Shown one piece after another: positions 1 to 43,333 of a stretch of 43,333 nucleotides of DNA. The stretch is taken from positions 1 to 43,333 of the IMG/VR virus record IMGVR_UViG_3300005663_000017; one strand, 5' to 3'. Under the pieces are notes generated by a model, which saw nothing but the letters and a program-made list of their open reading frames with translations, had not been told where the DNA came from and did not search any database. Each line of letters starts with the position of its first letter. Within the stretch, counting starts at the first letter, position 1. The translations under genes were made by a program, and so were the position numbers. Origin of the DNA: a virus.

Positions 1-113
1 ACAAAGAAGCGGCCACCATAAACCCCTGGATAAACCCTGGACCGGAAAAAGTCCATATTTTCAGGGCTGAACCAACGGCCCCCGACCTTCTCATGGGCCC
101 TTTGAATTGCTCC
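1..113. repeat. Left copy of exact 113-bp terminal direct repeat
   Basis: Bases 1-113 are identical to 43221-43333. This is what a circular or circularly permuted phage genome gives when assembled as a linear contig. The repeat lies inside a leftward gene that reads continuously across the junction, so it is most likely assembly overlap rather than a functional terminal repeat. A genuine short terminal redundancy cannot be excluded. Confidence 0.95.
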
Positions 114-3350: not shown

Positions 3351-3383
3351 ATTTCGGTGAAAAGGCGAGGGGCGTATGGATGA
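3351..3383 (+). repeat. Vestigial copy of the KRRGAYG gene tail
   Basis: Read in frame, 3351-3383 encodes ISVKRRGAYG followed by TGA, without an upstream start codon. The same tail ends terL (3040-3075) and the methyltransferase (4299-4335). This orphan copy overlaps the methyltransferase start, as if the methyltransferase segment entered by recombination at a short repeated gene end. Confidence 0.6.
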
Positions 3384-4335
3384 AGGGGCCAGATTAAATG
3401 TCTTGGGTCTATGTTCCGGCATTGGAGGAATCGAGCTTGGCCTTCATCGAACTGGAGGCTTTAGAGCTGTCTGCTACGTTGAGAAAAACCCTTGGTGCGT
3501 GGCTGTCACTATTAGTCGAATCAAAGATGGTCTGCTCTGCGATGCCCCAATCTGGACAGACCTCAAGACCTTCGACGGTAAGCCTTGGCGTGGAGTTGTG
3601 GATTGCATCGCTTCGGGCTTCCCGTGCCAGCCAGTCTCTACTGCCGGCAAGCGACTCGGCGAGGAAGATGAACGGTGGCTCTGGCCCGAAATCATCCGAA
3701 TCATTTGCGAGGTACGACCCCGAATCGTCTTGCTGGAGAATGTCCCAGGGCTCCTTGTTCGAGGGTTTGGACGAGTTCTCGGAGACTTGGCCGAGGGCGG
3801 GTATGACGCGGAGTGGGATGTCATTTCAGCTGAGTCCGCTGGTGCGCCGCACCTCCGAGAGAGAGTGTTCATTGTGGGCTACTCCAGCGAGTTGGGATTC
3901 GGTGGGGAGTACAGGCGGGGGACAGGGACGGAGCTTGAGGACGGACGTGAGGAGGTGGCCCACGATAACAGTAGAGGATGCGGGTCGGAAAGGAAGCGCA
4001 GAGGGGTGGAAGAAATACGAGGAGAAGGGCCAGACCTCCCAATGGCGGTTACGAAACTGGGTCAAGGTGTGGCCCACGCCGACGCAGAGGGATTCACGCA
4101 CATTTTTGGGGGCGGCAAGGCGGCCATATTGGCAGGGTGGAGAGAACTTGGTAGCGACGGCTGGTGGAACGCTGAACCCCTATTGGGTCGAGTGGCTCAT
4201 GGGGTTCCCAATCGGGTGGACCGCCTTAGAGCCCTTGGAAACGCCGTAGTGCCACAGGTGGCCGAGGTTGTGGGTAGGATGATTTTAGAGCGGGAGAACC
4301 GCGTGGGTTTGAAACGTAGAGGCGCATATGGATGA
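3376..4335 (+). CDS. DNA (cytosine-5) methyltransferase
   Basis: 319 residues. Transfers a methyl group from S-adenosylmethionine to cytosine C5, probably protecting phage DNA from host restriction. Motifs appear in canonical order: I, GLCSGIGGIELGL (11-23); IV, GFPCQPVS with catalytic Cys84; VI, ENVPGL (121-126); VIII, RERVFIVG (161-168); X, ALGNAVVPQVAEVVG (286-300). Residues 170-270 form the target-recognition region. No restriction nuclease is adjacent, so it is an orphan enzyme. The C-terminus carries the GLKRRGAYG tail shared with terL. A second reading frame stays open through most of the gene. Confidence 0.92.
   Translation: MDEGARLNVLGLCSGIGGIELGLHRTGGFRAVCYVEKNPWCVAVTISRIKDGLLCDAPIWTDLKTFDGKPWRGVVDCIASGFPCQPVSTAGKRLGEEDERWLWPEIIRIICEVRPRIVLLENVPGLLVRGFGRVLGDLAEGGYDAEWDVISAESAGAPHLRERVFIVGYSSELGFGGEYRRGTGTELEDGREEVAHDNSRGCGSERKRRGVEEIRGEGPDLPMAVTKLGQGVAHADAEGFTHIFGGGKAAILAGWRELGSDGWWNAEPLLGRVAHGVPNRVDRLRALGNAVVPQVAEVVGRMILERENRVGLKRRGAYG
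3398..4249 (+). other. Overprinted 283-codon open frame inside the methyltransferase
   Basis: A +2 frame with ATG at 3398 is open for 283 codons within the methyltransferase gene. Its translation carries segments I recall from many phage database entries: SFARYDPESSCWRMSQGSLF, ETWPRAGMTRSG and LNPYWVEWLMGFPIGWTAL. Such entries seem to arise because conserved methyltransferase motifs, read one frame over, give conserved strings. No good ribosome-binding site precedes 3398. Whether the product is made is unknown. Confidence 0.3.
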
Positions 4336-16794: not shown

Positions 16795-18597
16795 ATGGCT
16801 AGACTTTATCAGCCTATTGAGATACTCACCCCGCTTGGGGTGAACGACCGAGACGCCCGCATGGGCGGCTACCCGAACGAGTCCACCAATTGCAGGAACG
16901 TGGACTTCTTCGGCGACCATATATCTACGAGGAAGGGGCGGGATAGGTACAACACCGCAAGGAACGGCAGCGGTCTTGACATTTACAGCCTCCACTATTT
17001 CACCGATGAGACGGGGGCTGGACACCTACTAAAGACGGCCGATGATGCAATATGGTTGGGCTCTGCCCTTTCTAAAACAGGGACGTGGACGAGCAAGAGG
17101 GCGGGATTCACGGCCGACAAGGTGTGGACCTCTACGACCTTCGTAGAAGGAACGAGAATATATCTTGCGCTGACTAATGGCGTGGACGCCCCCCAGAAAT
17201 ACGACCCGCAAACAGGGGACGTTACCGACCTATCAGACGATGCCGATCTGCCAAAGGGCCAACTATGCTTCACCCTTGCCGACAGGGTGTTTATAGGCCC
17301 CATGACCGCCACAGACCAGGACTTCAGATTTGAGCACTCTAAGGACCTCGACGTTGCGGGTGCGACTTCTTGGAGCGAGGCAAATAACTTCGTCCAGATT
17401 CCAGGCCGTAGCATACCAAAAGGCGGCGTGGTTATGGGCGATGTAGCCTTCGTCCTCAACGAGGAGGAGATATTCGCCATTCTTTATACGGGTGATGCGG
17501 TCACGCCATTTTGGATTAGGCGCGTCGGGGACATGGGAACGCTCTCCTTCCAGACAATCAAGGTCCTTCCCGGCGAGAACGCATTTGTTTTTCTAGGCAC
17601 AGACGGGATGGTTTATAAGTTCGACCTCCAATACAGGCTAGAAAAGATAGGCGTCAAGATTCCTGGCGTCCTATTCGGAAGCGATGACACCGATTTCAGC
17701 GGCCTTAACAAGGCCCAGATTGCAGGGGCCGTGGCCGGGGTTGACCCCGAATTGCAGAAATATATGCTCTTTGCTCCTGATGCCGGAGACTCGTACAACT
17801 CCTTGGCCCTCGATTATTATTGGGGTACGAAGCTGATTGACATTGACCCTGTTTCCAGAAGAGGGAGCGGTCTTTTCTTGGGCCAATGGTTCTACAGCGA
17901 CGCCGACGTTAGGGCGATAGTGGTCGGGAGGGACAGCAACGATAAGAGGGTAATCCTGACCTCATCTGGCAAGCCCGACTATGTAACAGGGACGGTTTCC
18001 ATAAGTGCTGGTGGTGTGGTGACGGGGAGCGGCACCGCCTTCGATCAGAGCATGGTGGGAAACGACTTCATACCTACTTCTACGGGTACGGCTTTTGTAG
18101 TTACGTCGGTTGCGGGAGCCACATCTCTCCAGCTAACCAGCTACACCGAAGGTGCTGTCGCCGCTGGTGAGGCGTTCACCATAAGCCGTCGTGGGATAGT
18201 CTTTCAACAGGACAGCGGGGCGAGCGACGACGGGGCGGCTATCGACTCTTTTTGGTTCAGCCGGTGGCACACACACGGACGCATGGACCTCTTTAAGCAC
18301 TTCCCCGAGATGGATGTTATTACCAGGAATGTCGGGGATTGGTTATTGCAAGTAAATCACATGGTTGATTTCCAAGATGGCGTTGGCCTCCAGAAGACAA
18401 TTAACCTTGCGCCGGACTCGGCGATAGTCGGGACGGCGATAGTCGGAACGGCGGTGATAGGATCGCTTGGGGCCGTCCCGAGAAAGGTGCCGACCAACTC
18501 TTACGGAAAGGCCATTAGGTATCGTTTCAGAACGAATGGCCTCAATGAGAAGTTCACGCTCTATGGATACATCCCCTACGTTGAGGCCACGTCCTGA
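16795..18597 (+). CDS. Tail hub/stabilisation protein, propeller-like
   Basis: 600 residues. The N-terminus (GGYPNESTNCRNVDFFGDHI) and the repeating beta-strand pattern with aromatic/Gly motifs match the P22 gp10-like 'phage stabilisation' proteins that plug the portal and carry tail spikes. Residues about 395-465 are an inserted Ig-like stretch (SISAGGVVTGSGTAFDQSMV). Near the end the short repeat AIVGTAIVGTAVIGS encodes a small tandem duplication. It lies directly after the adaptor gene, as in podoviruses. Confidence 0.6.
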   Translation: MARLYQPIEILTPLGVNDRDARMGGYPNESTNCRNVDFFGDHISTRKGRDRYNTARNGSGLDIYSLHYFTDETGAGHLLKTADDAIWLGSALSKTGTWTSKRAGFTADKVWTSTTFVEGTRIYLALTNGVDAPQKYDPQTGDVTDLSDDADLPKGQLCFTLADRVFIGPMTATDQDFRFEHSKDLDVAGATSWSEANNFVQIPGRSIPKGGVVMGDVAFVLNEEEIFAILYTGDAVTPFWIRRVGDMGTLSFQTIKVLPGENAFVFLGTDGMVYKFDLQYRLEKIGVKIPGVLFGSDDTDFSGLNKAQIAGAVAGVDPELQKYMLFAPDAGDSYNSLALDYYWGTKLIDIDPVSRRGSGLFLGQWFYSDADVRAIVVGRDSNDKRVILTSSGKPDYVTGTVSISAGGVVTGSGTAFDQSMVGNDFIPTSTGTAFVVTSVAGATSLQLTSYTEGAVAAGEAFTISRRGIVFQQDSGASDDGAAIDSFWFSRWHTHGRMDLFKHFPEMDVITRNVGDWLLQVNHMVDFQDGVGLQKTINLAPDSAIVGTAIVGTAVIGSLGAVPRKVPTNSYGKAIRYRFRTNGLNEKFTLYGYIPYVEATS

Positions 18598-18824
18598 TGG
18601 TAAGGAGAACCTTTACGCCGCGACACCAATTTCCGGATATCCCTGGGCTGAGGAGGGAGCTTGATGAGATATCACGGATGTTCCTTAATCCAACCGCCGT
18701 GAAGAGGACTCCGTCAAGCGCGACGGATTCGGGCAACCAGGGAGATTGGACCTATGATTCAAGTTATTTATATCTTTGTACCGCGGATAACACTTGGCGC
18801 CGCATAGCGCACAGCACTTGGTGA
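18597..18824 (+). CDS. Small tail protein
   Basis: 75 residues, TGATG overlap with the previous gene. The C-terminal half (GDWTYDSSYLYLCTADNTWR) is a short beta domain widespread at the ends of phage tail or fibre proteins, typically ending in a 'W.R.A...W' signature as here. Probably an accessory of the tail. Confidence 0.55.
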   Translation: MVRRTFTPRHQFPDIPGLRRELDEISRMFLNPTAVKRTPSSATDSGNQGDWTYDSSYLYLCTADNTWRRIAHSTW

Positions 18825-18827
18825 TTT

Positions 18828-19316
18828 ATGAAAAACCGATTTTGGTCACGAGTGAATATTCTAGACCGGGACAGCTGTTGGATTTGGAAAGGAACCTTGA
18901 ATAAGACAGGTGGTGGATATGGCACGCTCCAGCTTAACGGCAAACAGGCAGGGGCGCATCGAGTAGCTTATGAAATGGAGGTTGGGCCAATCCCCGAGGG
19001 AATGTTTGTGTGCCATCATTGCGACAATCCGCCCTGTGTAAATCCGTCTCACTTATTTGTGGGCACGCAGAAAGATAATATTCAAGATGCTGCTTCAAAG
19101 GGCCGCATGGCTTCTGGGGAACGACATGGGTTGAGGCTTCATCCAGGGCGTGTTTCACGAGGGGAACATCGTCCATCAGCAAAACTAACGGAGGAAATTG
19201 TTAAGGAAATTCGCCTGGACAAGAGAAGCGGTGTGGAACTGATGAAGATTTATGGAGTTAGCTCGTCTACCATAAGTGAAGCAAGAACAGGGGAGACGTG
19301 GAAACATGTTAAATAA
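18828..19316 (+). CDS. HNH endonuclease with C-terminal HTH (homing type)
   Basis: 162 residues. N-terminal CWIWKG and GAHRVAYE, then the HNH core [20 protein letters not shown] (61-80), with His63-His64, three cysteines and Asn72/His75, and [13 protein letters not shown] after it. Residues about 119-158 form a helix-turn-helix ([20 protein letters not shown]...SSSTISEA) that would contact target DNA. This is the layout of free-standing phage homing endonucleases. Inserted between tail genes; its end overlaps the next gene by 11 bases. Confidence 0.85.
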
Positions 19317-19710
19317 AGGGTTGCGATTTCTACTTGGTAGCCTTTTTGTCTTTAGCCTCTTCCCGGGGACGGCTCAGGCCCACACCCCTATTTTGAACAA
19401 GGCCACCCTTCATGCGGCCACCAGGGGGCTCCGGGCCGATTACGAGAAGCTCAAGCGGGAGATGATGGAAGCCTACGCTTCGGGCGACCTTGGAAGAACC
19501 AAGGAGGAAGTAGCCAGGGCGACGAGGAGGCTGAACGGGGCTGATGCCGATATAGAGATTAGGCTCAACTTCATAATCCAGATGACGAACGAATATATCC
19601 AAAAGCCTTCGGACTATAAGGCCGTGAGGGTTCAATGGGAAATAGGCGAAACCGCAAAGCTAATCTTTGACCAGAGACGCCGGATCAAAAGGCTTCGGGG
19701 GATTGAGTAA
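19306..19710 (+). CDS. Hypothetical exported helical protein
   Basis: 134 residues from the ATG at 19306 (GGGGAG upstream). Residues 1-25 are a clear Sec signal peptide (MLNKG, hydrophobic core, cleavage after GTAQA). The mature part is charged and helical ([20 protein letters not shown]). No family recognised. An exported protein within the tail operon is unusual. Confidence 0.6.
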
Positions 19711-19907
19711 TGGGCGAAACCGTGGAAATCCCAAGAATTGCACTCGTAGCTATCTTGGATAGCATGAGGATGAACTGTGTGGTCCTTGAAAAACTCTTAC
19801 GGGGAGAGCCGATAACGACCCTCGACCCTATCGAGCCGGTAGAGCCTTTCGACTTTGACGAGGCCGAGCGGAGTGCTCTTGAGGAGCCAGATGATGAAAC
19901 CGAGTAA
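19710..19907 (+). CDS. Small acidic protein
   Basis: 65 residues, start overlapping the previous stop (TAATG). One amphipathic helix (residues 5-32), then an acidic Pro/Glu-rich tail (DPIEPVEPFDFDEAERSALE). Overlaps the fibre gene by 14 bases. Unknown. Confidence 0.5.
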   Translation: MGETVEIPRIALVAILDSMRMNCVVLEKLLRGEPITTLDPIEPVEPFDFDEAERSALEEPDDETE

Positions 19908-20955
19908 GCGGTTAGCAATTGCGGTCCTTGCCTTGGTGGGGGCGTGGTTCGTCGGCTCAAAGGCGCTGGCGGGCACAATAAGCCTTGGTAGGGTTTCGAC
20001 GGGCGACACCATCACGGCTTCTTCGATTAACGACCCTCGGGCCACGCTCGAAGCCACTATCAACGGCGGGATAGAGAACGTCAACATCTCTGCCACCGCC
20101 GCGATAAGTGAGTCCAAGATTGCTTTCACAAGTGGTGGGCATGACCACGGCGGCGGCTCTGAGGGAACGCCTGTCGTCGGTGTGGCCCTCCAGGGCTATT
20201 TATTCGGCCTTGGCATATCCAATGCTGCGGGCGACACAGCCCACGATATTGACATAGCTGTAGGGCGTGCCACCGACTCAACGGACTCGACCAACCTTGC
20301 CGTTTCAGCCACGCTCACAGCCGCCATAGATACCCAAGGCATTAACGGGATGGACGACAACGATGATGTCACAAATGATGCCGAGGCCGACACCTGGTAC
20401 GAAGTTTTGGTTGTCCAGAAAAGCGACGGGACGGCCATAGGCGGGTATTACAATAAGATAGCGACTTCGATGAATTGCCCGTCGGGGTACACCAATTGCA
20501 CCTTTAGGATAATCGGATATGTCCGGACAGGCTCAGGAAACAATATCATCAACTTTACTCGGGTTGGAAGGTATTTCAGGTGGGATGACCCGATTAAGGA
20601 TGTTGACGACAACACTATCACAAACGACACCGCAGAGACGGGCACCCTGACCGCACCACCTACTACGCTTGCCTTGGTTCGTCTAAGGGTTGCTTCTGAT
20701 GGGGACCAGGGCAACTTTCTATTTGGTGGTCTGGTACGTCCCACGGGGGACTCCGACACTACGGCCAACGAGGACGAGTTTTGCATTGGAGTGGAGGCCC
20801 AATCCGGAGATGGTAGCACCGATGGAGTAGTTGGAGAGTGTACGGTTCTGGTGGATAGTAACTCTCAAATGGAATATATGGCTGTTGAGGATGCGAACAC
20901 CACTACCGTTATAATCAACACCCTCGGCTATTGGGACACCATAGGGATTGAGTAA
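19894..20955 (+). CDS. Tail fibre-like protein with Sec signal peptide
   Basis: 353 residues from the ATG at 19894 (GAGGAG upstream; 19891 also possible). Residues 1-26 form a signal peptide (MKPSKR, core, cleavage after SKALA). The mature N-terminus resembles phage fibre sequences: GDTITASSINDPRATLEATI, ISESKIAF and a HDHGGG element. The rest is Asp/Thr-rich beta sequence. If exported, this fibre-like protein would leave the cytoplasm before assembly, or it has a role outside the virion. Confidence 0.6.
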   Translation: MKPSKRLAIAVLALVGAWFVGSKALAGTISLGRVSTGDTITASSINDPRATLEATINGGIENVNISATAAISESKIAFTSGGHDHGGGSEGTPVVGVALQGYLFGLGISNAAGDTAHDIDIAVGRATDSTDSTNLAVSATLTAAIDTQGINGMDDNDDVTNDAEADTWYEVLVVQKSDGTAIGGYYNKIATSMNCPSGYTNCTFRIIGYVRTGSGNNIINFTRVGRYFRWDDPIKDVDDNTITNDTAETGTLTAPPTTLALVRLRVASDGDQGNFLFGGLVRPTGDSDTTANEDEFCIGVEAQSGDGSTDGVVGECTVLVDSNSQMEYMAVEDANTTTVIINTLGYWDTIGIE

Positions 20956-23416: not shown

Positions 23417-26400
23417 TGGCCGAACTAGAAAGAACAATCCCCTTCGATTGGGATGTTTATAATGAGACGCTCACGCCCGATGTGACGCGAAGGACTAATT
23501 CTGTTTTTGAGCTAGAGAGGCGCGGGGAGCTCCCGAAGGCACAGCTGGAGTCACTTCAAGAACTTCGCCGCCGCGGCCTTGTCCCATCCAGGCAGACCGA
23601 CATTTCCTTGGAGCCAGAGCAGGAAGCCGAGTTCCAAGAATGGATGAGCACCGCCAATCCTAATATCGGCGACCCCGACGACCACCGCCAGCAATACGAT
23701 TACCGCAGGGCGTTCCTGTCGGGGATGGTTCCACAGACCGACCCCGCTACGGGCCAGCAACACGGAGCCTCCACTTACAAGGCCCCTGACCACCCCAATA
23801 GGTTTGTCGAGAACGAACAAGGCGAACTCATAGATACCATCACCGGGCAGCGCATGGGGGCTGAGGCGGTGCCCAAGGACAACGGCGTTCAAGTCCACCT
23901 TATTAAAAAGGCCCCCTCCAAGAGAAGGCAACTTATTCGCACCCTGGGCGAGCTAGGGCTAGGGGAAGTCGAGGGCGATCCCCTGCCAGAGGGGGACGAA
24001 ACGGAGGTTTCTCAGATACAATCGCCCTTCATGTCTGCCGAAGAAACGGAAGCGGAAAGGCTCGCAGAATTGGCGTTCTTGGGTACGGAGCCATATAGAG
24101 CGAAGCCGTTTGGGGGGATCGCTGGCCAGATTGCTCATGGCACATTCTATGCGTGGATGATTGGTGCCGCTGGCATCTATTCAATAGTGACGGCTCCCTT
24201 CACAGACGACGACCCGCTTGCGAAATTGCAGGAGCAATTAGCTGAGACACCGTTGGTGGAGGGCGGCGATACCTTCGCTGAACAGGTCGCCTTTGGTGCT
24301 GGTGCCTTCATTGGCACCATACCGCTGATGATAATAGGCCACCAAGCCGTCGTGGCGGCCCTGCCGGGTCTTTCTGCGACACTCGCTGGGAGAAGCGTCC
24401 AGGCTATGTTGGTTTTCATGGCCCTCCACCAAGCCCAGACGGGGCGAAAGATTGACCTTCTTGGCCTTACTAGGGCGGCGCTTACGGGGCTCATGCTACC
24501 GATAACGGGTCGGGTCGGTGGCACTTTGCGTCCCGCTCGTGCGGGCGCGGCCAGGTTCGGTGCTGGCACCGGCCTTGGTGCGACAATCTCTGCTCTCACC
24601 GGAGAGGACACGGAGAGCACCGTCCAACACGCCCTGATGACCGGCTTCCTCGCCCTGATAATGGGCCGGACAACCCACCTTCCTTTTAGTGAAAGGTCGA
24701 GGCTTCTAAAAGAGCAAGCACCAAGAGCCCGAAGGATACCCCCCACGGTTGAGGCCAAGATAGCGGAAGAAGAGGCCAGGTTCCAAGCGGCGCGAGAAGC
24801 AACAGCCAAGAGGCCGAGGACCGCCGAAGAAGAGCTCCTCCGGTTGGACCTAGAAGTGAAAGAGGCACCGGAGATACCCAACTTTGAAGAACGCCTTGCG
24901 GCCTCCGAGCTACTCGACCCGGAATTTACCGACCTGCTTAGAGCGGTTGATGAGGGCGAGGTTGGCCTAGAGGATGCCACAACATTCGTGACGGAAAGAG
25001 GGGCCGATGAGGTTTTCACCGTCGAGGAGCAAACGTCCTTAATAGAGCGGGCCGCAGAGGTTCCCGAGGAGCGGGCCTTCACCCTCCCGTCCGAGGAGTT
25101 TGCCCAAGAGGCCGCGCCCGTGGTGCCAGCAGAGGTTATACCGCCCACGGAGCGGGTTCCTGGCTTGGAAGATTTGGAGAAACAGACCGCATCTCAAATG
25201 ACGGTTGAGGAGCTTGATGTTGCCATAGAAGCAAGAAGATTAGCAGACAAAGAAGGCTTGGTGGAAGTATTCGGCGAACAGGGCGCTAAAGACTATGAAC
25301 GTCTTGAAAGAATAGCCAATACCTCTCTCGACCCCCAAAAAGCCGATAGGGCCTCTGAGGAACTTCAGGAAAGGTTTGGAGACTTAACTCCTGAACAGGA
25401 ACGATTGGTGTTTGGACTTGGTGAAACCGAGCCAACCGTTGAAGAATTGCGGGAAATACGGGAAAGAAAATTAGACCTGGAGGGGGCAGGGCTTCCCCCC
25501 ATTGACAAACCCCCGCCCCCCGAAGAAGCCGAACCCGCTCTTTCGAGAGAGGCTTTTCTAAAGAGGTGGGTTGAACAAATCGAAGCCGCAGAGGCCGAGC
25601 CCGCCGCCGCCGACACCGTCCCCATTCAGGAAGCCATCGACCGCCAAGTGGAGGTAGTCGAGGGCTCCAAGGGTGCTGAGTTCGAGAAGCAAAAGGCGGT
25701 CCTTGAAGAACTAATCGAGGCGCAGAGCGTAGGGATTCGTGATGTGTCGAGCACCTTTGTTGCGGAGCCGCCCGAGCTGGCGCCCCGCACAGAGATAACG
25801 CCAGCAGGGGAGCAAGCCCTTGTCCCAGGCACCCCGCGACAGGAGCCCTTCAAGCGACCGCTGACGCCCGAGGTCGAACAGCAGGAGCGGATAAAGGCTC
25901 TGGAACCCGTCGAGCCTTTGCCTCCAGAGCAATTGGAGATTGAGGAGGCCGAGGCGCTAGAGCTTGAGAAACTTTCTGTAGAGGAACGGGCAAGAATAGA
26001 ATCGGAGCGGGAACTCAAACTTGTTACGGAAGGAGAGACAAAGGAACAGCGCAAATTGGTTAGAGATACCATTCGCCGACTTGGCCGGCTCAACAAGAGA
26101 GATATAGACATAGCAGGTGTAGGGGAGGATATTCACCCATCCCTCATCAATGCTAAGGGCGGCGGCGTCATCTTGGATAATCTCATTGAGGCATTTGTTG
26201 AGGAAGGATTATTACCAGACCTGCCCGCCACGGATCCTTTTGCCTCAACTCAGGATGATGTCGTAGCTCTTATTATTGATGCTCAAGCAGACCTCAGACC
26301 TGTTTCTAGGAAGAGAGGGCTTTTCACGAAAAAGAAAGCTGAAAGGTTCCCTCGGCCCCTTGGTGCGGCGGCTGAGTTTGGCGAAGTGCAACGGATCGCT

Positions 26401-38603: not shown

Positions 38604-39089
38604 ATGGGAAAGAAAAAAAAAGAAACAATGGCTGTTGGATTTCCTGAGAGAGTATCCATCAAGAGACGATCCCTCTCGGTTAAGGGAAGCCTGACGTTCA
38701 ATGAGTGGTTGGATGTCGGCTATCTGCTCAAGGACATACATGGCTCTATTATGTTTTGGCTCGGGGACTGGCTTAATTACGGAGAAAATAGATATGGCGA
38801 GCAGTACGCCCAGGCAGTCGAGGTTTCAGGCTACGCTCCTCAAACGCTGGCTGACGCAAAGTGGGTGGCCTCTAGGATCAAACCTTCGTTACGAAACGAA
38901 CATTTGACCTTTGCCCACCATAGGGCCATCGCTCCCCTCGGCGAGAAGGATCAGAAGAAATGGCTCAGGAAGGCATGGGAAGATAAGTTGACGAGCTCGG
39001 CTCTGAGGCTTGCGGTCCCGGGGGGCTCGAAGTCGAAGGCGGCAAAGAAAGTTGAGTGCCCACACTGCAGGAAGGAGTTTGAACTCTAA
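38604..39089 (+). CDS. Hypothetical DNA-associated protein (WLNYGE family)
   Basis: 161 residues. A basic start (MGKKKKETMAVG), then LTFNEWLDVGYLLKDIHGSI, FWLGDWLNYGENRYGEQYAQ and LTFAHHRAIAPLGEKDQKKW. I recall this combination from phage and plasmid proteins near replication genes, with a helical, ParB-like arrangement. A C-terminal CPHC is half of a zinc motif. Located just after the candidate origin; a replication or partition role is inferred. Confidence 0.55.
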   Translation: MGKKKKETMAVGFPERVSIKRRSLSVKGSLTFNEWLDVGYLLKDIHGSIMFWLGDWLNYGENRYGEQYAQAVEVSGYAPQTLADAKWVASRIKPSLRNEHLTFAHHRAIAPLGEKDQKKWLRKAWEDKLTSSALRLAVPGGSKSKAAKKVECPHCRKEFEL

Positions 39090-39106: not shown

Positions 39107-39412
39107 ATGGGAACAGAGCAGACAGAGAGAGTTCCAAGTAGAGCAGACCAAGTAGAGGCGAAGCGGTCTACGCTGACCGAAACCCACGGCGAAATTCTCC
39201 AAGTGGCTGATCGGTTGCTGGAAAAAGCCGGCGAGTTGGGTTGGAGGGTCCGGGGACATGGGGGCGGAGCACCGACAGACGAAAAAAGTGCCCCAACACC
39301 CGTCGAGCATCGGTTTCTCGATAGCGCCGAGGAAGCCTTGGGCGTTCTTATACAAGTTGAAGCGCGCCTAAATGAGTCGATTATTAACTTTGACAACTAC
39401 TTCGGGGCATAG
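39107..39412 (+). CDS. Hypothetical protein, last gene of rightward block
   Basis: 101 residues, AGGAGGG upstream. Two helical regions flank a Gly/Arg/Pro linker (RVRGHGGGAPTDEKSAPTP). The first (HGEILQVADRLLEKAGELGW) looks like a four-helix-bundle fragment. No family known. No terminator was found between its stop and the structured element at 39421. Confidence 0.55.
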   Translation: MGTEQTERVPSRADQVEAKRSTLTETHGEILQVADRLLEKAGELGWRVRGHGGGAPTDEKSAPTPVEHRFLDSAEEALGVLIQVEARLNESIINFDNYFGA

Positions 39413-39420
39413 GGCTTTTG

Positions 39421-39516
39421 GTGCGGGCGGCTAACCGGCGGGGCTGATGTGTCCTCGTTAGAACGGGACCGTGGGGCCCAGATACCTTCCGGTGGCGGTG
39501 GGCCCCTGACCCGCAC
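39421..39516. ncRNA. Cloverleaf-like structured element abutting the repeat array
   Basis: Closing stem GTGCGGG/CCCGCAC (39421-39427 with 39510-39516). Inside are CGG-CTAA-CCG (39428-39437), a 7-bp stem with one bulge around TAGA (39451-39469), and GGGGCCC/GGGCCCC (39473-39479 with 39500-39506), whose top on the minus strand is ACC-GGAA-GGT, a GNRA tetraloop. The 3' arm of the closing stem overlaps the first repeat unit. It is not a tRNA, because there is no T-loop and the arms differ. The GNRA loop mildly favours minus-strand transcription, placing it at the 3' end of a gene-array-structure transcript. Confidence 0.6.
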
Positions 39517-40015
39517 GCTCTGCTCTTATGGGTTACTCGTCCAGCTTGGCCCGCTCTAAGTATATGGGTTGCTCTAATACAATGGCACGCTCAACCTCAA
39601 CGGGTTGCTCCAATACAATGGCACGCTCGACCTTCATGGGTTGCTCTAGAGATATGGCCCGCTTCTAGGCTATGGGTTGCTCTCCTGATGTGGCCCGCTC
39701 TTCTTATTTGGATTGCTCTTTACTAATGGCTCGCTCCATTTCCCTGGGCTTCTCGACAGGGTTGGCTCGCTCTCTAAGTATGGGTTGCTCACTCAGCGCG
39801 GCTCGCTCATCGACGATGGGTTGCTCGTACACAATGGCCCGCTCTTCATTTTTGGTTTCCTCATCCAACGTGGCACGCTCTTTTCTCCTGGGTTCCTTCC
39901 ATGAAATGGCCCGCTCGTTTCGGTTGGGTTACTCTTACTACCTGGCTCGCTTCGAGGACATGGGTTGCTCCTTTCACTTGGCTCGCTTGCGGCTAATGGT
40001 TTACTCTTCCGCCGT
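39512..40015. repeat. 28-unit array: alternating 9-mers with variable 9-nt spacers, exact 18-bp period
   Basis: Fourteen units of type B (GGCNCGCTC, at 39512, 39548, ... 39980) alternate with fourteen of type A (GGGTTGCTC and variants, at 39530, 39566, ... 39998), always 18 bases apart. Each is followed by nine variable bases, 26 of 28 of which end in T. On the minus strand the unit reads GAGC(A/G)N(C/G)CCA plus eight variable bases. The spacers are nearly all different; taatacaat/caatacaat is the only close pair. The array starts inside the stop codon of the Transposase_20-like gene. It is not CRISPR (period and spacer far too short). Function unknown. Confidence 0.95.
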
Positions 40016-40675
40016 GGCGTGAACCTTGCCCAAATACTCCTCCGCGTAGGGGGGCCTTACCGTCAACCCCTCGATGGTCCTCCACTCAACGTAGAGGTCT
40101 TTGATGAACATCTTGACCATGTAGCGGATCGAGGCGTTGTGCCTATGACCATCCGACTTGCCCCACTCTTTGCTGATGAGCCGATGCTTGTAGTTATCGT
40201 AGAAGTCTCGATACGGCGAACTACACTTGAGGAAGCTCGGCCCCAACACTCCAAGCAACTTAGACTTGAGGAAAGAGTTGTAAGCCAACTTCTCGCCCTT
40301 CTTGCGCTTCTCGGCCGTCCCGTCCGAGTTGACCGCCAATCCTCCGAACCTCCACATCTTTGATACATTTTCAGCGATGGAAATATCATACTCTGCAAGG
40401 ATCACACCCCCCATTGTCGGGCCAATGCCCTTGACGCCCTTCAAGAAGCCGTCCCAAATCGGGAACGCTTTAAGCAATTTATTGACCGTTAGAAGCTGGG
40501 CACGTTCTAGGCCATTAAGCGCCTCCGCAATCCCAGCGATACGCTCCTGGTCCTTGTCGGAAAGATGTATCTCGGTGGCCCTTGCTTGTATCCGGCCCCC
40601 GGCCTGGAGCCTTAACCGCTGAAGGTCGTAAAACATCCGCACTTCAAATCTTAATTGCTCACGCAATGCGCTCAT
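40001..40675 (-). CDS. IS110-type Transposase_20-domain protein lacking the DEDD nuclease domain
   Basis: 224 residues from the ATG at 40675, overlapping the upstream stop (ATGA). Residues 1-75 are helical. Residues 80-92 (GVKGIGPTMGGVI) are a helix-hairpin-helix, followed by MWRFGGLAVNSDGTAEKRKK (107-126), LAYNSFLKSKLLGVL and SPYRDFYDNYKHRL, then RHNASIRYMVKMFIKDLY. This is the order seen in the C-terminal domain of IS110 transposases, which carries a catalytic serine; Ser117 is the candidate here. The RuvC-like DEDD domain of true IS110 enzymes is absent. The stop codon lies in the first repeat unit, so gene and array are probably cotranscribed. Confidence 0.75.
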   Translation of the reverse strand: MSALREQLRFEVRMFYDLQRLRLQAGGRIQARATEIHLSDKDQERIAGIAEALNGLERAQLLTVNKLLKAFPIWDGFLKGVKGIGPTMGGVILAEYDISIAENVSKMWRFGGLAVNSDGTAEKRKKGEKLAYNSFLKSKLLGVLGPSFLKCSSPYRDFYDNYKHRLISKEWGKSDGHRHNASIRYMVKMFIKDLYVEWRTIEGLTVRPPYAEEYLGKVHATAEE

Positions 40676-42563: not shown

Positions 42564-42983
42564 TCATCCTCCTCTAAAGATTACAATCGCCGACGGGAAC
42601 GGGGCGGAGTTCTTGTGACCGTCGAACTTGAGCCGACCCTTGATAAACCTGATTTCGTCGGCCCTCATAACGTAGTCGTGCCACCAGCGCGTGTCGGTCC
42701 TTGAGGGTATGAGGCAGACGACGGTGGCCCCGTCCAAGGCTGACTCGTAAGCCTTCTTCATCCAGCGGCCAATTTCTCGGCCGTATGGGGGATTAAGCCA
42801 ACAGGTTTCCCCCAGCCACAGAAAAGTCAACCCGTCCTCATCTTTAGAATAGAAGCGCCGGCATTTTGCATTTTCGGCCGTGGCGCATACGTCCACCGTG
42901 AAGCCGAACTCCGCATCTAGTTCGTCAAATACGCCTTGCGGCGTGGCCCAGTCGAGGCGTTGGCTGGAGAAATGAACCTTCAT
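42564..42983 (-). CDS. DNA N6-adenine methyltransferase (phage Dam type)
   Basis: 139 residues from the ATG at 42983 with AGGAGGAGG upstream; the frame is open further to 43058. DWATPQGVFDELDAEFGFTV and DVCATAENAKCRRFYSKDED form the N-terminal motif, WLNPPYGR (62-69) the catalytic NPPY, and APFPSAIVIFRGG the end. These define the phage Dam family (PF05869 by recollection). It methylates adenine, probably for protection from restriction. It is the second DNA methyltransferase of this phage. Confidence 0.88.
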   Translation of the reverse strand: MKVHFSSQRLDWATPQGVFDELDAEFGFTVDVCATAENAKCRRFYSKDEDGLTFLWLGETCWLNPPYGREIGRWMKKAYESALDGATVVCLIPSRTDTRWWHDYVMRADEIRFIKGRLKFDGHKNSAPFPSAIVIFRGG

Positions 42984-43054
42984 GGCCTCCTCCTCTGTTC
43001 GGGTTGATTGCTCCTGCGGGGCCACCACCGGAGCGATGGCCCCTGGCCGAGCCG

Positions 43055-43333
43055 TCAAGCCGTGGCCAGTTCCTCGGCCTTAGCTTGGGCCTTCTTGAGC
43101 GTGGAAAACTCTTGGAATTCTCCCGCCGTTTCAATGTCTCCCTCGGGGGTCGCCTCTCGAATGGTGAAAAGCCGAGGGTAGGTGTTCCCCGTCAAGCAAC
43201 CGCTCTGCTTCTCGGAGGTCACAAAGAAGCGGCCACCATAAACCCCTGGATAAACCCTGGACCGGAAAAAGTCCATATTTTCAGGGCTGAACCAACGGCC
43301 CCCGACCTTCTCATGGGCCCTTTGAATTGCTCC
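43055..43333 (-). CDS. Junction-spanning hypothetical protein, 3' part
   Basis: Remainder of the gene whose start is at base 143 after circularisation. An internal ATG at 43276 exists, but the frame stays open upstream to the RBS-preceded ATG at 143, so the longer product is preferred. The protein is a soluble, mixed alpha/beta polypeptide ending in an alanine/lysine-rich helix (STLKKAQAKAEELATA). The stop overlaps a possible TTG start for the adenine methyltransferase frame. Function unknown. Confidence 0.75.
   Translation of the reverse strand, partial: GAIQRAHEKVGGRWFSPENMDFFRSRVYPGVYGGRFFVTSEKQSGCLTGNTYPRLFTIREATPEGDIETAGEFQEFSTLKKAQAKAEELATA
43221..43333. repeat. Right copy of exact 113-bp terminal direct repeat
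   Basis: Identical to bases 1-113. Removing one copy leaves 43,220 bp of unique sequence. Joining the copies restores an uninterrupted leftward gene of about 103 codons, from an ATG at 143 to a stop at 43055. Confidence 0.95.

What the first reader, a model, noticed from the sequence alone, without database searches (positions are those of the whole stretch)
39421..40675. Possible new system: RuvC-less IS110-type protein plus an array of short variable sequences
A gene encoding only the Transposase_20 (C-terminal, serine-bearing) domain of IS110 transposases ends inside the first unit of a 28-unit array. The array alternates two conserved 9-mers with variable 9-mers at an exact 18-bp period, and its other end abuts a cloverleaf-like structured segment. 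IS110 enzymes are guided by a bridge RNA that has two different loops carrying short guides of similar length to these spacers. The alternation of two repeat types with short variable segments next to an IS110-derived domain is therefore suggestive. Possible roles: a multi-guide RNA for phage recombination or targeting, a decoy array, or a DNA-binding platform. All are inference.
Basis: partly seen in the sequence, partly recalled or inferred. Interest (0 to 1): 0.95.

Follow-up and report, generated by a model that had tools for sequence, protein, structure and literature searches.

The report
Phage TIGR-TasA guide-RNA array
The feature is a phage copy of a known RNA-guided DNA-binding system (TIGR-Tas, described in 2025): a nuclease-free TasA protein beside an array that should yield 14 small two-part guide RNAs, so it is real and looks functional but is not a new kind of system.

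Summary
On the minus strand, window 39511-40024 holds 29 alternating 10-nt repeats (edge GAGCGNGCCA, loop GAGCAACCCA) separated by 28 spacers of exactly 8 nt: 14 units of 36 nt. It starts inside the 3' end of a 224-aa gene (40001-40675, minus). The protein is a solo Nop/IS110-C-terminal domain. It passes NCBI's curated TIGR-Tas model (135.9 bits, cut-off 100). Its closest solved structures, by sequence and by predicted fold, are TasR and TasH; IS621 comes after them. The array matches the sequence-level hallmarks of a dual-repeat TIGR array in Faure et al. 2025, except for a U-tract terminator. Of 80 homologous viral loci, 76 carry such an array, always on the tas-sense strand. The claim of a possible new system is not: it is a TIGR-TasA locus. 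Most likely a TasA dimer loads 36-nt tigRNAs and binds, without cutting, DNA matching 5'-spacerA-(0-2 nt)-rc(spacerB). Targets are unknown; tests for self-targets and cross-targets were at background. The 'cloverleaf' is not significantly stable and not conserved.

The parts
40001..40675 (-). tasA: 224-aa solo Nop-domain (TIGR-associated, nuclease-less) protein
   Evidence: NCBIfam NF052498 TIGR_Tas_endo 135.9 bits, above cut-off 100; phmmer to TasR 9mty E 2.4e-22 and TasH 21kl E 2.2e-10; AlphaFold2 model (pLDDT 85.5) matches TasH TM 0.80 and TasR TM 0.72-0.73
39511..40024 (-). dual-repeat TIGR array: 29 alternating edge/loop repeats and 28 8-nt spacers, i.e. 14 predicted 36-nt tigRNAs; overlaps the last codons of tasA
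   Evidence: chain parsing and phase statistics
40015..40024 (-). 5'-truncated first edge repeat (GTTCACGCCA), inside the tasA 3' end
   Evidence: sequence; the same layout in most related arrays
39511..39520 (-). 3'-truncated last edge repeat (GAGCG|TGCGG)
   Evidence: sequence; the same layout in related arrays
39421..39510 (-). G+C-rich foldable segment directly after the array (the 'cloverleaf'), no U tract; possibly a transcript 3'-end structure, not conserved
   Evidence: MFE -47 kcal/mol for 39411-39535, z -1.75; no Rfam match; absent in relatives

Best explanation
This is a phage-borne TIGR-TasA system. The minus-strand transcript of tasA runs into a 514-nt TIGR array. TasA, a Nop-domain protein expected to form a dimer through its coiled coil, binds each unit through symmetric box D (AG) and box C (CCA) motifs in the edge and loop repeats. 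A host RNase, with TasA present, cuts within the edge repeats to give 14 tigRNAs of 36 nt (half edge, spacer A, loop, spacer B, half edge). Spacer A pairs with one strand and spacer B with the other strand of a DNA target of form 5'-A-(0-2 nt)-rc(B). With no nuclease domain the complex most likely binds, bends and blocks the DNA, interfering with competing phages or plasmids or repressing host genes, rather than cutting it. Shown here: protein family, predicted fold, array anatomy, strand, co-occurrence. Taken from the published TasR/TasH/TasA work: processing and two-strand targeting. Inferred: co-transcription with tasA, blocking as the effect, and the kind of target.
For: Curated TIGR-Tas model passed. 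PDB sequence search: TasR E 2.4e-22, TasH E 2.2e-10; with a profile of the family, TasR 3e-49, TasH 5.6e-38, IS621 8e-5. Predicted fold: best PDB matches are TasH and TasR, then IS621/ISCro4. Array: 10-nt edge and loop repeats with AG and CC in the same places, an A-rich loop, an extra C-G pair in the edge (C-G in 408 of 466 edges, U-A as the consensus of G003), spacers almost without information. Truncated edge repeats at both ends. All 76 detected arrays in 80 Tas loci lie on the tas-sense strand, none on the other; shuffled controls score at most 13 against a threshold of 25. Starting from the DNA pattern alone, the same arrays and tas genes are recovered. Non-coding: 7-10 stops in every frame of the RNA strand and 17-19-nt steps in relatives. 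Reference description: PMC12045711.
Against: No transcript data. No U-tract terminator directly after the array, and no convincing promoter. No target was found: tests in 20 records and across 1146 units were at control level. The Pfam hit alone is below its cut-off. Some loop repeats in this array are changed (e.g. GAGTAAACCA, AAGGAACCCA), so a few units may be inactive.
Confidence: 0.96

Rival explanations
1. A genuinely new RNA-guided system: an IS110-derived protein with a multi-guide array, separate from any described family.
For: RuvC-less IS110-type domain beside an array of paired short variable segments.
Against: Protein passes the curated TIGR-Tas model; TasR and TasH are its nearest solved relatives; the array has the sequence-level hallmarks published for TIGR arrays.
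Confidence: 0.02
2. A coding repeat: the array is a hexapeptide-repeat tail of the IS110-like protein (EQPxxxERAxxx in the tas frame) that has decayed.
For: Period is a multiple of 3, the array lies in frame with the gene on the same strand, and the edge repeat varies at a synonymous Arg position (CGN).
Against: 7-10 stops in each frame of that strand; relatives have 17- and 19-nt steps that break the frame; the variable edge position is the unpaired one between the two halves of the edge repeat; spacers are random while box C and box D are kept.
Confidence: 0.01
3. An inert remnant: the tasA gene and array are a decaying leftover with no present role.
For: Several repeats depart from consensus; one 36-nt unit looks like a diverged duplicate (spacers TTGTATTG and TTGTATTA).
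Against: tasA is an intact frame with a ribosome-binding site; all 28 spacers are exactly 8 nt; box C and box D are kept in most repeats.
Confidence: 0.05
4. A DNA-level platform: the alternating 10-mers are tandem protein-binding sites (e.g. a segregation or replication locus) and no guide RNA is made.
For: Regular spacing; Faure et al. report ParB-like partners in some tasA operons; a regulator-like gene lies nearby (38604-39089).
Against: Strand fixed relative to tas in every locus; RNA-type pairing of the edge halves with covariation; three Tas proteins were shown to bind 36-nt RNAs; the nearby gene resembles the LmbU family, is on the other strand, and has no relative in the fetched loci.
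Confidence: 0.03

Closest known systems
TIGR-TasA, dual-repeat type (e.g. FpTIGR of Flavonifractor plautii; Faure et al. 2025, PMC12045711)
   Same: Solo Nop-domain protein; alternating edge and loop repeats of about 10 nt; 36-nt unit; truncated edge repeats at the ends; array next to the gene on the same strand; phage setting.
   Different: Spacers of 8 nt rather than the usual 9; no U-tract terminator directly after the array; array begins inside the tasA 3' end (also true of many relatives here).
TIGR-TasR (9mty) and TIGR-TasH (21kl, 9w04)
   Same: Nop domain, predicted fold, array logic; the published TasH array also has 8-nt spacers (16 nt in all).
   Different: No N-terminal RuvC or HNH nuclease here, so binding rather than cleavage is expected.
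IS110/IS621 bridge-RNA recombinases
   Same: Homologous C-terminal RNA-binding domain; guide RNA with two short pairing segments.
   Different: No DEDD/RuvC domain; an array instead of a single bridge RNA; sequence match far weaker (8e-5 against 3e-49).
CRISPR arrays
   Same: Array of repeats and variable guides next to an effector gene.
   Different: Two alternating 10-nt repeats and 8-nt spacers; the effector and its neighbours have no match in the PADLOC defence library.

Membership tests
TIGR-Tas (dual-repeat) | Nop-domain Tas protein | tested here: met
   NF052498 135.9 bits over the 100-bit cut-off; TasR and TasH best by sequence and fold
TIGR-Tas (dual-repeat) | Two distinct alternating 8-12-nt repeats interspaced by short spacers, 36-nt unit | tested here: met
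   (10-nt repeats, 8-nt spacers, 14 units)
TIGR-Tas (dual-repeat) | Box C and box D shared by edge and loop repeats; A-rich loop; extra, covarying edge pair | tested here: met
   AG and CC in both repeats; C-G edge pair, U-A in G003
TIGR-Tas (dual-repeat) | 5'- and 3'-truncated edge repeats at the array ends | tested here: met
TIGR-Tas (dual-repeat) | Rho-independent terminator after the array (typical, not universal) | tested here: not met
   G+C-rich structure without a U tract directly after the array; the nearest terminator-like site on the same strand is about 200 nt further on
TIGR-Tas (dual-repeat) | Array processed into 36-nt tigRNAs bound by Tas | not testable with these tools
   Needs small-RNA sequencing
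TIGR-Tas (dual-repeat) | Tandem-spacer pairing with both strands of a DNA target | tested here: inconclusive
   No target found in own or related phage DNA above control; 16 nt is too short for searches of large collections
TasA subtype | No nuclease domain | tested here: met
   224 aa, starts directly in the predicted coiled-coil helices; no nuclease hit
IS110 transposase | N-terminal DEDD/RuvC-like catalytic domain | tested here: not met
   NF033542 not reached by the window protein
IS110 transposase | Bridge RNA flanking a transposable element | not tested
   No Rfam match in the window and a TIGR array instead; element ends were not searched for

The most novel reading that the evidence does not exclude
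A nuclease-free TasA loaded with 14 guides acts as a multiplex, cleavage-free RNA-guided silencer that a phage uses against rival phages or host genes; the function of TasA loci is unproven in the published work.
Probability: 0.45. Interest if true: 0.65.

Novelty: new member of a known kind. Interest (0 to 1): 0.3.

Why it matters
It adds a clean TasA locus, from a contig with a 113-bp terminal repeat (probably a complete phage genome), to a family whose natural role, targets and spacer origin are open questions. The search also shows how tightly tas genes and arrays go together (76 of 80 loci), that strand orientation is invariant, and that spacers do not detectably target the carrier phage, which points away from self-regulation. 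Tas genes in cultured phages annotated as 'transposase' or 'hypothetical' (Microcystis phage Mvi-JY20, mycobacteriophages) offer tractable systems for finding real targets.

Tried and rejected
Coding-repeat reading: rejected (stops in all frames, frame-breaking steps in relatives). Conserved structured element after the array: rejected. Self-targeting of the phage genome by 5'-A-(0-2)-rc(B): no excess over mispaired spacers in any of four geometries over 20 records. Cross-targeting among related phages: 5 exact matches against 4 in the control. Conserved partner genes: window neighbours have almost no relatives in the fetched loci; the weak ParB hit of 38604-39089 is better explained by the LmbU regulator family, itself below its cut-off. 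Close relatives in species-level bacterial and archaeal genomes: none found. Spacer searches in whole public collections were not run, because by my estimate 16-nt patterns would give tens to hundreds of chance hits.

Full report
What is there. The minus strand of the window carries a 224-aa gene at 40001-40675, with GGAGG 8 nt before its ATG. Its last codons run into an array at 39511-40024. Read on the gene's own strand, the array alternates an edge repeat GAGCGNGCCA and a loop repeat GAGCAACCCA: 29 repeats and 28 spacers, all spacers exactly 8 nt, hence 14 units of 36 nt. The periodicity is far beyond chance (phase information at period 36 of 1.03 bits per column against a maximum of 0.33 in 2000 shuffles). 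The array is not coding: each frame of the RNA strand has 7-10 stops, and relatives include 17- and 19-nt steps.

What the protein is. Pfam gives only a sub-threshold Transposase_20 match, but NCBI's curated model NF052498 'TIGR-Tas system RNA-guided endonuclease' is passed at 135.9 bits against a cut-off of 100. That model's name is misleading for this protein, which has no nuclease domain. The nearest solved sequences are TasR (9mty, E 2.4e-22) and TasH (21kl, E 2.2e-10). A family profile gives TasR 3e-49, TasH 5.6e-38 and IS621 only 8e-5. An AlphaFold2 model (pLDDT 85.5, pTM 0.81) matches TasH (TM up to 0.81) and TasR (0.72-0.73), then the IS110-family recombinases IS621 and ISCro4. The relatives have no nuclease hit either. 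This makes it a TasA.

What the array is. Faure et al. 2025 (PMC12045711) describe TIGR arrays as two alternating 8-12-nt repeats with short spacers, 36-nt processed units, box D and box C motifs shared by both repeats, an A-rich loop, an extra covarying pair in the edge, truncated edge repeats at both ends, and usually a terminator. Over 466 edge and 454 loop repeats from the window and its related records, AG and CC stand at the same positions in both repeats, the loop is A-rich, the edge has an extra C-G pair (U-A in G003), and spacer positions carry almost no information. [quoted passage not shown] Only the terminator is missing: a G+C-rich foldable segment without a U tract follows, with no significant stability (z -1.75), no Rfam match and no counterpart in relatives.

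Two-way association. Starting from the protein, 76 of 80 homologous IMG/VR loci carry a matching array, always on the tas-sense strand and never on the other; shuffled sequence scores at most 13 against the threshold of 25. Starting from the DNA pattern alone, 17 stretches were found. Pooling these with the first protein hits gives 19 records besides the window, all with arrays. A tas gene is present in 15 of them. In three of the other four (G006, G017, G018) the array runs to the contig end where the gene would lie; one (G013) is an orphan array.

How it most likely works. From the published TasR, TasH and TasA experiments, the array is transcribed, the Tas protein binds it, an unknown host RNase cuts within edge repeats, and each 36-nt tigRNA guides a Tas dimer to DNA in which spacer A pairs with one strand and spacer B with the other. 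The published 8-nt 3' overhang implies the target form 5'-A-(0-2 nt)-rc(B)-3' (my derivation from the cleavage rule). Without a nuclease, blocking or bending of the target is the likely effect; this step is inference, and the biological role of TasA is unproven in the literature too.

Targets. Spacer pairs do not match the carrier phages above mispaired controls, nor related phages (1146 units, 5 exact matches against 4 in the control). This makes self-regulation unlikely for this clade and leaves competing elements or the host as candidates, but 16-nt targets are too short for a meaningful search of large collections.

Verdict. This is a new member of a known kind, TIGR-TasA, in a virus record with a 113-bp terminal repeat.

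Noticed in passing
L027 2318-3385 (Microcystis phage Mvi-JY20, PP438412.1): A cultured cyanophage encodes a Tas protein (NF052498, 193 bits; annotated hypothetical) followed by an array of ATGCGAGCC / ACGAAACCC repeats with 9-nt spacers and a U-tract terminator. A good host-phage pair for finding natural targets.
   Followed up: partly
L028 (mycobacteriophage BPBiebs31 gp74), L025 (Gordonia phage Morrissey gp42), L026 (Rhodococcus phage Peregrin gp187): Tas proteins annotated 'transposase' or 'hypothetical' pass NF052498 at 206-232 bits and have palindromic stem-loop units in the gap upstream, as expected for stem-loop TIGR arrays; a tblastn search finds relatives in 73 Mycobacterium phage records.
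   Followed up: partly
window 1-113 and 43221-43333: 113-bp direct terminal repeat: the record is probably a complete circular or terminally redundant genome.
   Followed up: yes
window 38604-39089 (+): LmbU-family regulator-like protein (103 bits, below the curated cut-off of 125) next to the TIGR locus on the opposite strand.
   Followed up: partly
window 42564-43058 (-) and 3376-4335 (+): Two DNA methylases: a phage Dam-type N6-adenine and a C5-cytosine methyltransferase.
   Followed up: no
G013 25804-25958 (loci L037-L039): Orphan 9-repeat TIGR-like array with no tas gene detected in a 44-kb viral contig.
   Followed up: partly
L149 3732-6632; G008 17957-20171: Very long arrays of about 160 and 121 repeats (about 80 and 60 units), far above the typical 5-15 units reported.
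   Followed up: no
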